From IMG/VR virus record IMGVR_UViG_3300033153_003790, positions 1-42,149 of that record: DNA of 42,149 bases. One strand, written 5' to 3'. The position numbers were made by a program, and so were the translations under genes. This document shows positions 12,631 through 27,129 of the stretch, in pieces (positions within the stretch are counted from its first letter, which is position 1; each line of letters opens with the position of its first letter). This stretch comes from a virus. Below the pieces are notes generated by a model. It was not told where the DNA came from. It saw only the letters and a program-made list of their open reading frames with translations, and ran no database searches.

Positions 12631-12646
12631 TACTGGACACTTAGTA
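12631..12646. promoter_or_regulatory. Operator-like site, left arm
   Basis: TACTGGACACTTAGTA. Its near-exact reverse complement (one mismatch) lies at 12752-12767, and the two flank the centre of the divergent control region. The core CTGGACACTT also occurs in the promoter region at 19473-19482. Likely a regulator binding site; the small Xre-type protein at 16024 is a candidate binder (inference). Confidence 0.5.
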
Positions 12647-12656
12647 TTTGTGAATA

Positions 12657-12672
12657 GTTAGGCTTGCCTAAC
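12657..12672. promoter_or_regulatory. 16-bp palindrome in the divergent control region
   Basis: GTTAGGCTTGCCTAAC, a perfect inverted repeat of 7-bp arms with a 2-bp centre, between the two divergent promoters. Typical size of a dimeric repressor operator. Confidence 0.5.
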
Positions 12673-12751
12673 AATGCTAGCGCTGCCTATATTGAGCATG
12701 TTCCTCTTATCTGTTCGGTCTGCGTTCGGCTGTTCCAGTATTATTCTCATT

Positions 12752-12767
12752 TACTAGGTGTCCAGTA
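12752..12767. promoter_or_regulatory. Operator-like site, right arm
   Basis: TACTAGGTGTCCAGTA, reverse complement of 12631-12646 with one mismatch. It stands about 50 bp upstream of the early promoter -35 box. Confidence 0.5.
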
Positions 12768-19955: not shown

Positions 19956-20303
19956 ATGCCTAACGAAGACATTGAGCAACTTAGGAAATACCGGAAACTC
20001 TACCACGCTTACCAAGGCGAGTACGATTGGCTGCAAGAGGCTATCTCTGAGCAACTTAAGTGGAAAAGAGTCAACATCCACGGCGGAGACCCCGATGTTC
20101 CACGTGGAACATTTGACTATTGGGCGCAAGAGCTTCAGGAAAACGAGGTCACCATAGAAGCAGATGGTGATTGGGCGATAATATGGAGAGTGGTTAAAGG
20201 TCAAGGGCCAGAAGATGCTAGGTGGGAGGCTAGGCTAATGGATATTTCGCTCTTAGAAGAAGATGGTGCTCTGTTTACTTATGAGGTCGAGCAACTACGA
20301 TGA
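19956..20303 (+). CDS. Hypothetical protein (115 aa) carrying a parS palindrome
   Basis: MPNEDIEQLRKYRKLYHAYQ ... then a beta-like part and an acidic C-terminus. No family recognised. Start chosen at ATG 19956 with GGAG six bases before; a TTG 12 bp upstream is unlikely. The codons for DVPRGTF at 20094-20114 form a perfect bacterial parS site. The stop overlaps the next start (ATGA). Confidence 0.7.
   Translation: MPNEDIEQLRKYRKLYHAYQGEYDWLQEAISEQLKWKRVNIHGGDPDVPRGTFDYWAQELQENEVTIEADGDWAIIWRVVKGQGPEDARWEARLMDISLLEEDGALFTYEVEQLR
20095..20112. promoter_or_regulatory. parS-like centromere site (ParB-binding palindrome)
   Basis: ATGTTCCACGTGGAACAT, an 18-bp perfect palindrome whose inner 16 bp (20096-20111) equal the bacterial chromosomal parS consensus TGTTNCACGTGNAACA, in the C/G form known from Pseudomonas. 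Such sites bind ParB-CTP and load the segregation complex. No parA or parB gene is seen in this genome, so host ParB would be the binder. Confidence 0.7.
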
Positions 20304-20950
20304 GTGAACTACCTGAACTACCCTACGGTTGGGAACTTGACGGAGACCAGAAGCGGTTGCCAAAGAAGGGCGAGTGCTACTGGAGTGATTCTCTTCACAC
20401 AATCGGCCAAGCGGAGTGCGACCATTCTGATGCTGGCGGTTCCGCGCAATGGATTCTCCGCCGGACACCCGCCAAGGCTGTGCCGAGAAGGGTAGGTACT
20501 GGAAGCGAAAAAATACAAATTAAGCGGGATGGGCTTGGCTATGTAGTAATTCGGCAGGGTACTCACACGATTCTTTCTAGGGCCGACGACGCCCGCAAAC
20601 TAGCCGCCGCGCTCGTGGCGGTGGCGGATGAAATAGAAGGCATAGCAGCCATCAAGGAAGCCACTGGGGTTGCAACGGAGGCCGCGCCTAACGCCAACAA
20701 GGAAGAGCATCCACGGCCTGACCCGCACGAAGACTGGGAAGTGGATGGAGACGAGAAGCCGGAGAGATACGTCGAGGTTCAGGGCGGATGCAACACGCAA
20801 GTCTGGATACATGACGACAGGGTGTTTCAGACAATAGAATCGCCAAAAGGCTTGACAATGGGCATAACTTGTTGGCCAGAGCAGGCACGTAGAATAGCCG
20901 CCATGTTCATCGCGGCGGCGGATGAGATAGAACACAACAAAGACGGTTGA
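20300..20950 (+). CDS. Hypothetical protein (216 aa) with internal duplication
   Basis: Contains two related halves, each ending in a helical segment: ADDARKLAAALVAVADEIE (near 94-112) and PEQARRIAAMFIAAADEIE (near 193-211). Between them is a charged linker (EEHPRPDPHEDWEVDGDEKP). Each half opens with a short beta-rich part. The 'AR..AA......ADEIE' end is common in small phage proteins. Function unknown; GC is higher than in its neighbours. Confidence 0.72.
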   Translation: MSELPELPYGWELDGDQKRLPKKGECYWSDSLHTIGQAECDHSDAGGSAQWILRRTPAKAVPRRVGTGSEKIQIKRDGLGYVVIRQGTHTILSRADDARKLAAALVAVADEIEGIAAIKEATGVATEAAPNANKEEHPRPDPHEDWEVDGDEKPERYVEVQGGCNTQVWIHDDRVFQTIESPKGLTMGITCWPEQARRIAAMFIAAADEIEHNKDG

Positions 20951-21468
20951 CAACAAAACATGCTGGCGTGCGTTAGAGCCGACACTCCTGGCTATTGGCA
21001 AAAGCCGAGGAACAGCTACCTGCCCGGCCGCCCGCCGACGTGCAGGCCACGCCAGCGCCGTTACAGCCGACCTGAATGCGGTGGCATGGCGAAAGCGATT
21101 ACTGCTTTGCCGCACGAAACACATGCCAGACTTTGTGCGGCCTTGTCGGCTCCAAAACAGAATATGCTAGTGTGCGGCGTGGCAGCGCTGGGTTGTGGTA
21201 AGCTGAAAACCGTGTCAAGCGAGTTAATTGCCTAAGCACTCGTCTATCACACGTGGAGCCGGGTGGGGAATCCGGCCACACTAGCACCAAGAACAGCTTT
21301 CGGGTTAAGCGCCCCATCGGCCGACACGGCGCACGGGTTAAGTTACTCGGCCCGGAGGCTTTGGGCGGCGGTGGCTGGGCGGCGCTCTCTGTGAAATAGC
21401 GGGGGGTGGCTGCCGGTCTTTGCAGGTAGACGTGCCTGACGCCGCCATTACGCACAAGGAGAAAGAAA
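20951..21468 (+). ncRNA. Large GC-rich structured non-coding region F
   Basis: 518 bp, clearly more GC-rich than the surrounding genes. Helices seen: GCTGGCGTG/CACGCCAGC (20962-20970 / 21048-21056); TGGCATG/CATGCCA (21082-21088 / 21122-21128) interlocked with GCCGCAC/GTGCGGC (21109-21115 / 21135-21141); TGCTAGTGTG/CACACTAGCA (21165-21174 / 21277-21286) interlocked with AAGCTG/CAGCTT (near 21200 / 21294); GGCGGCG/CGCCGCC (near 21364 / 21440). The first and fourth helices are copies with compensatory changes. A 91-codon open frame here has no ribosome site. It could be a large RNA or, less likely, a replication origin. Confidence 0.6.
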
Positions 21469-21735
21469 ATGAACATAGGTGATATTTACGAGACTAGCGG
21501 ATGGGCTATAGAAACTGCACATGGAACTCTTCGTCTTGGGCTATTGGTCCTAATGACAACACATAAGAGCATAATTTTTCAAGCAATAGGCTATCTCAAA
21601 TATCCTAATCATTCAGATGATGAAACACAATTCCCAGACAAGAGCCTTGGTTTTTCTAGTATATTGGCAATGCCAAGAGCAGAGGTTGAAGCATTAGATT
21701 TATTTTGTATTTATAAGGAGAAAGAAAATGAATGA
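21469..21735 (+). CDS. Hypothetical protein (88 aa)
   Basis: MNIGDIYETSGWAIETAHGT..., AT-rich codons in contrast to the GC-rich region before it. Strong ribosome site AAGGAGAAAGAAA, repeated before the next gene (21715-21727). Beta-rich N-terminal half. No family recognised. Confidence 0.72.
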   Translation: MNIGDIYETSGWAIETAHGTLRLGLLVLMTTHKSIIFQAIGYLKYPNHSDDETQFPDKSLGFSSILAMPRAEVEALDLFCIYKEKENE

Positions 21736-22396
21736 AGACAACATGAAACTCTGGAATCAAGTTTGCGAGACTGACCCATCACTGACAAAAGCGTTTAAAA
21801 TGAGAGGCAAAGTGCTCACGACAGCATGTGCCCAGTCTCAGCGGAAAAAAGCTACGGAGATATTTGGGCCTTGCGGTATTGGTTGGCGGGTAGATGATGT
21901 TTCTTTTCAATTGCTCGATCTTTCTGACGACCCACATGATAAGGTTCTGGCGTATCGAGGTGTTTTGGATTATTGCTTTGAGGATGGGAAGCACGGGTTT
22001 ATTTCCTTAGCATCTTCAATCGAAGTTTGGCAACATTCCAGCACGTACAAAACCTGGAGCAAGGTGGGAGATATTTACAAGAAGGTCAAGACTGATGCAC
22101 TAACCAAGGGCTTATCTGAGCTAGGATTCAATAGTGATATATTCGAGGGGAAGTTTGATGACAATAAATATGTTGCCGCGATGAATCAGAAGTTTAGTCC
22201 CACATCACAACCTAAGCCCCAGGCAAAGCCTGACGTAAACATGATGAAACTCCGTAGCGAAGCTGGAGAACAATGGCTATTACAATATAGCTCCGCTACA
22301 CATGCTATAACCAAGATGGCGGAAACCAAGAACATTACCAACGAAGCCAGCGCTTACATCCATGAGTTTTTCGAGGCCAAGGAGCAAGAGAAATGA
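21728..22396 (+). CDS. Rad52-like single-strand annealing protein (DUF1071/Sak-type)
   Basis: 222 aa. Anneals complementary single strands in phage recombination, working with the exonuclease next door. Residues 36-60 (AQSQRKKATEIFGPCGIGWRV) and the strong motif YKKVKTDALTKGLSELGF...DIFEGKFDDNKYV (117-149) are characteristic of DUF1071/Rad52-superfamily phage recombinases. The C-terminal 60 residues after a Pro/Gln linker (KFSPTSQPKPQAKP) are a separate helical tail, possibly SSB- or partner-binding. Coupled to a 27-aa gene and the exonuclease. Confidence 0.82.
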   Translation: MNEDNMKLWNQVCETDPSLTKAFKMRGKVLTTACAQSQRKKATEIFGPCGIGWRVDDVSFQLLDLSDDPHDKVLAYRGVLDYCFEDGKHGFISLASSIEVWQHSSTYKTWSKVGDIYKKVKTDALTKGLSELGFNSDIFEGKFDDNKYVAAMNQKFSPTSQPKPQAKPDVNMMKLRSEAGEQWLLQYSSATHAITKMAETKNITNEASAYIHEFFEAKEQEK

Positions 22397-22476
22397 GTTG
22401 GCCAGAGGCGGCTGTTGCTGTTACTATTTGTGCGGTTCTTGGTTGGTTTCTATGGCTTTGCTACAAGGCTAGATAA
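22393..22476 (+). CDS. 27-residue single-pass membrane peptide
   Basis: MSWPEAAVAVTICAVLGWFL then WLCYKAR: one hydrophobic helix with a basic C-terminal end. Start overlaps the recombinase stop (ATGA), stop overlaps the exonuclease start (TAATG). Ribosome site GGAGCAAGAGA. The perfect fit between two recombination genes makes a real gene likely despite its size. A membrane peptide in such a place is unusual. Confidence 0.6.
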   Translation: MSWPEAAVAVTICAVLGWFLWLCYKAR

Positions 22477-23084
22477 TGCGTGTCCACACAATGCCGCAGA
22501 AATCGCCTGAGTGGTTCGATATTCGTCGCGGCCATATTACCGGGAGCTCGTTTCAGACGATGGCCAACGGGCGTAAAGATACCATCGAAACGCTCTGCTA
22601 CAAAAAAGCCGCCGAGATAGTCACTGGTGTATGTGAAGATTCAAATTATACAAACGAAGCAATGGAGTATGGAACCGAAACCGAGCCTCTTGCAATATCG
22701 GCCTATGAAACCTCGACATTTACTCGGGTAGAGAGGGTGGGTTTCGTCGAGCTCGATGAGTACATCGGCTGCTCACCAGATGGGCTTGTGGGAGAAGATG
22801 GAGTTATTGAAGTAAAGTGCCCGATGCCGCATACACACCTAAAATATCTGTTGGCAAGTGATGCTTCGTGGACAGCGTATCGCTGGCAGGTTCAGGGCGC
22901 GTTGTGGGTAACAAACAGAGCGTGGATTGATTTTGTGAGCTACTGCCCCACATTCCCGCCAAACAAACAGTTGTTAATAACTAGGCTTCGCGGCGTTTCT
23001 GAGGACCATAGAGCTAAACTAGAGGCTGGCGCAAAACACTGCCGCCAGAGAATCAAAGAGATAGCGGAGAGCATGAATGGCTAA
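22476..23084 (+). CDS. YqaJ/lambda-Exo-type recombination exonuclease
   Basis: 202 aa. Degrades one strand of double-stranded DNA ends to make substrate for the annealing protein. Motifs: WFDIRRGHITGSSF (13-26), EAMEYGTETEPLA (61-73), CSPDGLVGEDGVIEVKCP (99-116) with catalytic Asp102, Glu112 and Lys114 of the PD-(D/E)xK core, and YRWQVQGALW (135-144) with the conserved Gln. Length is normal for the family. Overlaps the NinB-like gene by 8 bp. Confidence 0.92.
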   Translation: MRVHTMPQKSPEWFDIRRGHITGSSFQTMANGRKDTIETLCYKKAAEIVTGVCEDSNYTNEAMEYGTETEPLAISAYETSTFTRVERVGFVELDEYIGCSPDGLVGEDGVIEVKCPMPHTHLKYLLASDASWTAYRWQVQGALWVTNRAWIDFVSYCPTFPPNKQLLITRLRGVSEDHRAKLEAGAKHCRQRIKEIAESMNG

Positions 23085-25734: not shown

Positions 25735-26398
25735 GCGCTTTGAGGAAATATGGGAAGAATGGAAGCAACATCGAAAAGAAATACGTCATACACTTAAACC
25801 TACAACGGAGAAGCGGCAGTTGAAAAAGTTATCTAAGGTCGGCGAAGAAAAGGCGATAGCTATGATAGAAAACTCCATTGAGCAAGGATATATAGGATTA
25901 TTCCCGCCCAAAGACAAGCCGGTTAATAGATGCCTGAAGTTACTTGCTCCTATTCGAGAAGCATATCGGAAAGTATACGGCGAACATGCTGTACTTCCTA
26001 ACGCTTGGCAGTTACGAATAGCCGCTTTGTATGACGCTGGAGAGACCGAGAGGCTTAAGGCGCTAGCTGACCCAAATGTTATCCGACAAGGCAGGACAAT
26101 GGCCAGTGTGGCTAGGTGTGCGGATGGGATAGGGTGGGTAGAGAAGGTCATTGACGATAGAGAAGCTACGAAAATATCAAGAGGTCGCACCTGGGGTAGA
26201 CGAATTGATGCAGAGATAAAGGAGGTTGAAAGAGCAAGCCTCAAAGACGATGAAGAAAGAGTTGAACTCTTCAAGAAGCTTGACCGAGAAGAACGAGTAA
26301 AATGGATGGCCAAGGCGGTAGAGAAGTTCCCGAAAATGAAGGATGAAAGCTTGCTAAGAATGGCGGCTATGGCATGGGAGCAAAGCCTTGCTGGGTAG
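25688..26398 (+). CDS. Putative replisome organiser / replication protein
   Basis: 236 aa. The segment RFEEIWEEWKQHRKEIRHTL followed by RQLKKLSKVGEEKAIAMIEN and IEQGYIGLFPPK is typical of the C-terminal domain of phage replication-initiation and DnaD/O-like proteins that recruit host helicase. The remainder is helical and charged. The genome has no helicase, primase or polymerase, so it would depend on the host replisome, which fits this role. Exact family not certain. Confidence 0.65.
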   Translation: MKPTPEIEIPANLKSERFEEIWEEWKQHRKEIRHTLKPTTEKRQLKKLSKVGEEKAIAMIENSIEQGYIGLFPPKDKPVNRCLKLLAPIREAYRKVYGEHAVLPNAWQLRIAALYDAGETERLKALADPNVIRQGRTMASVARCADGIGWVEKVIDDREATKISRGRTWGRRIDAEIKEVERASLKDDEERVELFKKLDREERVKWMAKAVEKFPKMKDESLLRMAAMAWEQSLAG

Positions 26399-26579
26399 AA
26401 CGAAAATCCCCGATACTCTCATGCGGCAGTTAATCAAAAACGGCCATTTCTGGGAAGCGGTATATGATGTGTACCGGATAACTCTTTCGGCCAGGCAAGA
26501 GAATCGTTGTAAGACACTAGAAGATGTAGTCAACCTGATACGACGAGAAAAGGGTTGGCGGACATTGAAAACGAGATGA
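26388..26579 (+). CDS. Hypothetical protein (63 aa), last early gene
   Basis: LLGRTKIPDTLMRQLIKNGH... Start appears to be TTG at 26388, with GGGAG in front inside the previous gene; an ATG at 26421 has no ribosome site. Helical, basic end (RREKGWRTLKTR). The stop is 5 bp before the convergent terminator. No family recognised. Confidence 0.6.
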   Translation: MLGRTKIPDTLMRQLIKNGHFWEAVYDVYRITLSARQENRCKTLEDVVNLIRREKGWRTLKTR

Positions 26580-26585
26580 AATGAA

Positions 26586-26605
26586 AAAGCCCCCGAAGGG
26601 ACTTT
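26586..26605. terminator. Bidirectional intrinsic terminator between convergent operons
   Basis: On the minus strand AAAGTCCC-TTCG-GGGGCTTTTT: an 8-bp stem with a stable TTCG loop and T-run, ideal for the late operon. On the plus strand the same hairpin, with a C/A mismatch, ends the early operon. It lies 7 bp after the last early gene. Confidence 0.85.
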
Positions 26606-26678
26606 CTCACGCTAAATAGAAACGGCTGACACCGCCTACAAGACGACGTCGGGACTCCTTCCACACATGGCGGATGAG

Positions 26679-26858
26679 CTATTTAACCTTTTTCGCGGCT
26701 TTCTTGACACCTGCCCGCAACGAGCCAAGACCTAAGGCAATCGCCAAAGGCTCAACCCACGGAGGTATCGCCGCTCCGACAGCGCTTAGGCCGGCGACAA
26801 TAGCTACGCCAAGCGCCACAAAGTACGTCTTTTTGCCGTCCAGGAAGTCTAGTAACAT
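26679..26858 (-). CDS. Putative holin (59 aa)
   Basis: MLLDFLDGKKTYFVALGVAI, then two hydrophobic segments (about 12-30 and 35-49) separated by PPW, and a basic tail GVKKAAKKVK. Two-helix membrane protein with a charged C-terminus at the end of the late operon: the profile of a class II/III holin, which opens the inner membrane at lysis. Start after AGGAG. The endolysin it would release is not identifiable. Confidence 0.68.
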   Translation of the reverse strand: MLLDFLDGKKTYFVALGVAIVAGLSAVGAAIPPWVEPLAIALGLGSLRAGVKKAAKKVK

Positions 26859-26868
26859 TTTGCTTCTC

Positions 26869-27129
26869 CTACTTCAAGAGTTTCCAAATACCTAGTATAA
26901 TGGACGGGATTAAGATAATCGCCGCGCCCATTATTTTGAGTATTATACCATGTCTGGCCTGAATAGCAACCATAGAATGCTCAGGATTTCCATTTCCATG
27001 CAATGTCTTGCTGATTTTGCAGAGAGCCTCTGTGTGCTGCTCTAAGACTTCTGCATTTCTGCCAAGCGTTACAGCGTTGGACGTAAGAGCGTCTTTGATG
27101 TCGCTAATCGAGTCTTCCAGGTTAGTCAT
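26869..27129 (-). CDS. XhlA-like membrane protein (86 aa)
   Basis: Residues 1-55 are helical with coiled-coil character (LEDSISDIKDALTSNAVTLG...), residues 62-83 are one membrane helix (IILKIMGAAIILIPSIILGI) with a final KLLK. This is the plan of XhlA-type lysis accessory proteins (N-terminal coiled coil, C-terminal anchor). It directly precedes the putative holin, so the two form a lysis cassette. Annotation is by profile, not by clear homology. Confidence 0.65.
   Translation of the reverse strand: MTNLEDSISDIKDALTSNAVTLGRNAEVLEQHTEALCKISKTLHGNGNPEHSMVAIQARHGIILKIMGAAIILIPSIILGIWKLLK

What the first reader, a model, noticed from the sequence alone, without database searches (positions are those of the whole stretch)
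20951..21468. 518-bp GC-rich non-coding region with interlocked and duplicated, covarying helices
Two long helices are copies with compensated changes (GCTGGCGTG/CACGCCAGC versus GCTAGTGTG/CACACTAGC). Two clear pseudoknots are visible (TGGCATG and GCCGCAC pairs; TGCTAGTGTG and AAGCTG pairs). No ribosome site or plausible protein. It does not show tmRNA, RNase P or group I/II intron landmarks that I know. It may be a new large phage ncRNA, in the spirit of GOLLD or ROOL, or an origin of replication in front of the recombination genes.
Basis: partly seen in the sequence, partly recalled or inferred. Interest (0 to 1): 0.77.

Follow-up and report, generated by a model that had tools for sequence, protein, structure and literature searches.

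The report
Orphan GC-rich structured phage RNA candidate
A short-tailed virus of bacteria carries a half-kilobase, unusually GC-rich stretch that codes for no protein and has more complementary segments than chance would give, so it may make a large folded RNA, but no relative was found anywhere, so neither its fold nor its function could be confirmed.

Summary
Window 20951-21468 is a true gap between two + strand genes. It is the most GC-rich 518-base stretch of the 42-kb podovirus-like contig (0.60 against a mean of 0.47) and shows no coding signal in six frames. The quoted helices exist at essentially those coordinates. Perfect helices of at least 7 bp (12 against 4.2 in shuffles, P about 0.003) and interlocked pairs (11 against 1.4, P about 0.007) exceed chance. 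The two similar 9-10-bp helices occur in 38 of 20,000 shuffles. Thermodynamic support is modest (z -2.25 on +, -0.14 on -), and about 7% of control windows do as well. "Covariation" is not shown: it is similarity between two helices of one sequence. No Rfam family matches, including ROOL, introns and tmRNA. Best reading: an orphan large structured ncRNA, co-transcribed with the early/recombination operon (about 0.5). Rivals: a leader controlling the downstream genes, a DNA element, or functionless GC-rich DNA. Interesting but unproven.

The parts
20951..21468 (+). candidate structured RNA region: GC-rich non-coding gap between two + strand genes
   Evidence: GC maximum of the contig; no coding signal; no protein family; helix excess P 0.003; + strand z -2.25 against - strand -0.14
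20961..20976 (+). 5' arm of the end-to-end closing helix (TGC 20961-20963, TGGCG 20964-20968, GCGTTAG 20970-20976)
   Evidence: pair probability 0.76-0.99; predicted from one sequence
21436..21454 (+). 3' arm of the closing helix (CTGACGC 21436-21442, CGCCA 21443-21447, GCA 21452-21454), ending just before the RBS
21016..21023 (+). 5' arm CTACCTGC of second long-range helix
   Evidence: 8 perfect pairs with 21422-21429, probability 0.90
21422..21429 (+). 3' arm GCAGGTAG of second long-range helix
   Evidence: costs 12.6 kcal/mol when forced
21082..21088 (+). TGGCATG, pseudoknot stem 1 5' arm
   Evidence: perfect complement of 21122-21128
21109..21118 (+). GCCGCACGAA, hairpin 5' arm (pseudoknot stem 2)
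   Evidence: pairs with 21132-21141, probability 0.93
21122..21128 (+). CATGCCA in the hairpin loop, could pair back to 21082-21088 and form an H-type pseudoknot
21132..21141 (+). TTTGTGCGGC, hairpin 3' arm (pseudoknot stem 2)
21165..21174 (+). domain B closing helix, 5' arm TGCTAGTGTG
   Evidence: 10 perfect pairs, probability 0.88, in the minimum-energy fold
21277..21286 (+). domain B closing helix, 3' arm CACACTAGCA
21200..21205 (+). AAGCTG, possible pseudoknot partner of 21294-21299
   Evidence: perfect complement; costs 6.0 kcal/mol in a nested model
21295..21360 (+). 3' three-way junction closed by AGCTTTCGGGT/GCCCGGAGGCT
   Evidence: pair probability 0.98, inner helices 0.91-0.92; conflicts with AAGCTG/CAGCTT
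20300..20950 (+). upstream gene (216 aa; its last 60 residues weakly match phrog_2060)
21469..21735 (+). downstream gene, 88 aa, no family
21728..22396 (+). recombination protein matching PHROG exonuclease families; matched record HTVC035P calls it single-strand annealing protein
   Evidence: phrog_7838 2e-34
22476..23084 (+). YqaJ-type exonuclease
   Evidence: PF09588 4e-25

Best explanation
The region encodes a large structured noncoding RNA of about 0.5 kb, read from the + strand as part of the early/recombination transcript (20.3-26.4 kb). Shown: a non-coding, GC-outlying gap with an excess of complementary segments. Inferred: that it is transcribed; that its ends pair with each other and enclose a pseudoknotted central hairpin, a multibranched domain B and a 3' three-way junction; and that it acts as an RNA in its own right (a scaffold or self-assembling RNA, by analogy with the large RNAs of other phages), being cut out of or stable within the operon transcript. 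The molecular role itself is a guess.
For: Longest internal non-coding gap in the gene model used and the most GC-rich 518-base stretch of the contig. Long GC-rich intergenic regions in a lower-GC genome are the signature used to find structured RNAs (PMC6429828), though that method favours genomes lower in GC than this one. No coding signal in six frames and no protein family. Helix excess P 0.003, interlocked helices P 0.007, similar-arm pair 38/20,000. + strand folds better than its shuffles (z -2.25, 7 of 400), - strand does not (z -0.14, 173 of 400), as expected for an RNA that uses G-U pairs on one strand (21 G-U pairs). Predicted closing helix ends directly before the RBS of the next gene.
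Against: No homologue at any sensitivity available, so no covariation. Fold energy is not exceptional: about 7% of control windows reach z -2.3. Windows of 160 bases inside the region are mostly near z 0. No terminator of its own and no convincing promoter near it. The several tests of helix content were chosen after seeing the sequence.
Confidence: 0.5

Rival explanations
1. A long structured 5' leader or intercistronic element that controls translation or stability of the 21469-21735 gene and the recombination genes behind it (cis-acting RNA).
For: It lies directly before an RBS and start codon. The predicted closing helix ends 1-2 bases before the RBS. All neighbours are on the + strand.
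Against: In the predicted fold the RBS is unpaired, so no obvious switch is seen. No riboswitch or leader family matches. 518 bases is long for a leader.
Confidence: 0.17
2. Functionless or decayed GC-rich DNA (for example foreign sequence picked up by the mosaic phage genome) whose helices are partly a by-product of high GC.
For: Orphan in every collection searched. The gene before it is also GC-rich (0.56-0.60) and the next gene is AT-rich (GC3 0.26), so the area is mosaic. Folding z only modest.
Against: Helix and interlocked-helix counts exceed dinucleotide shuffles, which keep the GC. Compact phage genomes rarely keep 0.5 kb of idle sequence. No trace of a decayed protein.
Confidence: 0.2
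3. A DNA element: replication origin, single-strand initiation site, packaging site or recombination site built of inverted repeats.
For: Inverted repeats next to recombination and replication genes.
Against: Excess folding on one strand only. No tandem repeats, iterons or AT-rich unwinding stretch. GC skew follows gene direction and does not turn here. The initiator-like gene and repeats GCCAAGCG lie at 25.7-27.1 kb. Terminase genes lie elsewhere (4.9-12.5 kb).
Confidence: 0.11
4. A divergent member of a known large RNA class (group I or II intron, tmRNA, ROOL- or GOLLD-like) too far from the Rfam models to be recognised.
For: Size and pseudoknots are in the range of such RNAs; domain B ends in CACTAGC-ACCA, which resembles a tRNA acceptor end by eye.
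Against: Group I and II intron, tmRNA and ROOL models give no match at E<=10. The whole-library scan of 801 bases at E<=10 gives only a chance snoRNA match. ARAGORN finds nothing. No intron-split gene at the borders.
Confidence: 0.02

Closest known systems
ROOL RNA (Rfam RF03087)
   Same: large, predicted pseudoknots, phage genome, no protein
   Different: no covariance-model match; no tRNA island nearby, whereas ROOL is often near one (PMC12286853); helix order unrelated as far as one sequence tells
GOLLD RNA
   Same: large phage noncoding RNA of unknown role
   Different: no match in the whole-Rfam scan; shorter (0.5 kb, whereas many GOLLD members exceed 0.8 kb, PMC12286853); not near tRNA genes
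GC-rich intergenic-region (GC-IGR) candidate RNAs of bacteria (PMC6429828)
   Same: found by the same two outlier properties, length and GC of a non-coding gap
   Different: those candidates were backed by comparative alignments; this one has no homologue, and the phage genome is not AT-rich (GC 0.47)

Membership tests
ROOL (RF03087) | match to the Rfam covariance model | tested here: not met
   (no match at E<=10; the positive controls did not ring either, so one search is weak on its own)
ROOL / GOLLD | often placed near a tRNA island | tested here: not met
   no tRNA in the whole contig; a habit rather than a strict requirement
ROOL / GOLLD | RNA-only homo-oligomeric cage | not testable with these tools
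   needs cryo-EM or native gel of the transcript
GOLLD | match to an Rfam covariance model | tested here: not met
   whole-library cmscan; not run singly, because the accession tried first (RF01998) proved to be a group II intron model
tmRNA | tRNA-like domain with T-loop and tag reading frame | tested here: not met
   (controls ring in 14 of 14 genomes)
Group I intron | P3-P7 catalytic core | tested here: not met
   (controls ring)
Group II intron | domain V | tested here: not met
   (controls ring)
Replication origin (O-type iterons) | direct repeats with adjacent AT-rich unwinding region | tested here: not met
   short repeats lie instead near the O-like gene
Structured noncoding RNA (any) | covarying base pairs across homologues | tested here: inconclusive
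   no homologue found; seed searches lose most copies diverged by more than about 15%
Structured noncoding RNA (any) | transcription | not testable with these tools
   no RNA-seq available

The most novel reading that the evidence does not exclude
A previously undescribed class of large (about 0.5 kb), multi-domain, pseudoknotted phage RNA with a duplicated helix, encoded in an early operon next to the recombination genes and acting on its own.
Probability: 0.35. Interest if true: 0.75.

Novelty: new member of a known kind. Interest (0 to 1): 0.42.

Why it matters
If it is a real RNA it adds a new class to the small set of very large structured RNAs carried by phages, whose functions are unknown. 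Its place inside the recombination operon rather than in a tRNA array would give a different handle on what such RNAs do. At present it is a single-sequence candidate.

Tried and rejected
Protein-coding on either strand: ORFs 20960-21235(+), 21099-21476(-) and 20600-21124(-) have negative codon scores and no significant Pfam or PHROG match; 21099-21476(-) also has no tblastn match in phages, and eight further frame fragments have no Pfam match. Motif scan GAACAGCT-CGGGTTAAG in IMG/VR gave 15 hits; most are one shared gap-6 sequence (which looks coding) and the rest scattered, none related. Scan CACGAAACACATGCCAG gave 4 chance hits with no similarity beyond the 17 bases. Six-seed searches with the two ORF translations in IMG/VR and GTDB: nothing. 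Simulation: 80% of copies at 10% divergence would keep a seed, 41% at 15% and 15% at 20%, so only close relatives are excluded. Single-sequence covariance models of domain B and of the 3' junction against 50 related phage records: nothing, with no positive control. Upstream-gene and terminase searches for syntenic relatives: none usable. tRNA/tmRNA reading of domain B (ends in ACCA, tRNA-like arms by eye): rejected, no T-loop and no model match. HDV-like reading of the pseudoknot: rejected by eye, wrong order and spacing of stems. Loop-composition test (A-rich unpaired bases): no different from shuffles. In one search the AAGCTG/CAGCTT constraint was off by one base; the corrected value is.

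Full report
What is there. The window is a 42,149-base virus record. Its structural genes are podovirus-like: head-tail connector, tail tubular proteins and internal virion protein. Its capsid is nearest to that of HTVC010P-like pelagiphages at about 40-44% identity. No close relative of the phage was found through the terminase, recombination or upstream-gene proteins. In the gene model used, the + strand early genes run from about 12.9 to 26.9 kb. Between the stop codon of a 216-aa gene (20948-20950) and the RBS and ATG of an 88-aa gene (21469) lie 518 bases with no gene. They are followed by a recombination protein of the exonuclease/annealing PHROG families, a YqaJ exonuclease, an SSB, an endonuclease VII/HNH-like gene and an O-like initiator.

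Noticed in passing
window 21456-21471 and 21715-21730: Identical 16-base RBS-plus-start sequence AAGGAGAAAGAAAATG before two consecutive genes, and a family of near copies before several early genes (14 matches with up to 3 mismatches against 0.5 expected): a shared translation-start cassette.
   Followed up: partly
window 12631-12767: 26-base inverted repeat, 85% complementary with 85 bases between the arms, in the AT-rich gap between the divergent gene blocks; possibly a regulatory site or the early promoter region.
   Followed up: no
window 25999-27071: GCCAAGCG / GCCAAGCGTTA repeats in and after the O-like initiator gene; a candidate origin, weak statistically.
   Followed up: partly
window 20300-20950: 216-aa protein with two similar segments (ARKLAAALVAVADEIE and ARRIAAMFIAAADEIE), an internal duplication seen by eye; the last 60 residues weakly match phrog_2060.
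   Followed up: no
window 21469-21735: AT-rich 88-aa gene (GC3 0.26) directly after the GC-rich region, with no known family; sharp mosaic boundary.
   Followed up: no
window 1-42149: Podovirus-like contig whose capsid is about 40-44% identical to HTVC010P-like pelagiphages but with a YqaJ exonuclease/SSB/O-like replication and recombination module; no close relative in the collections.
   Followed up: partly
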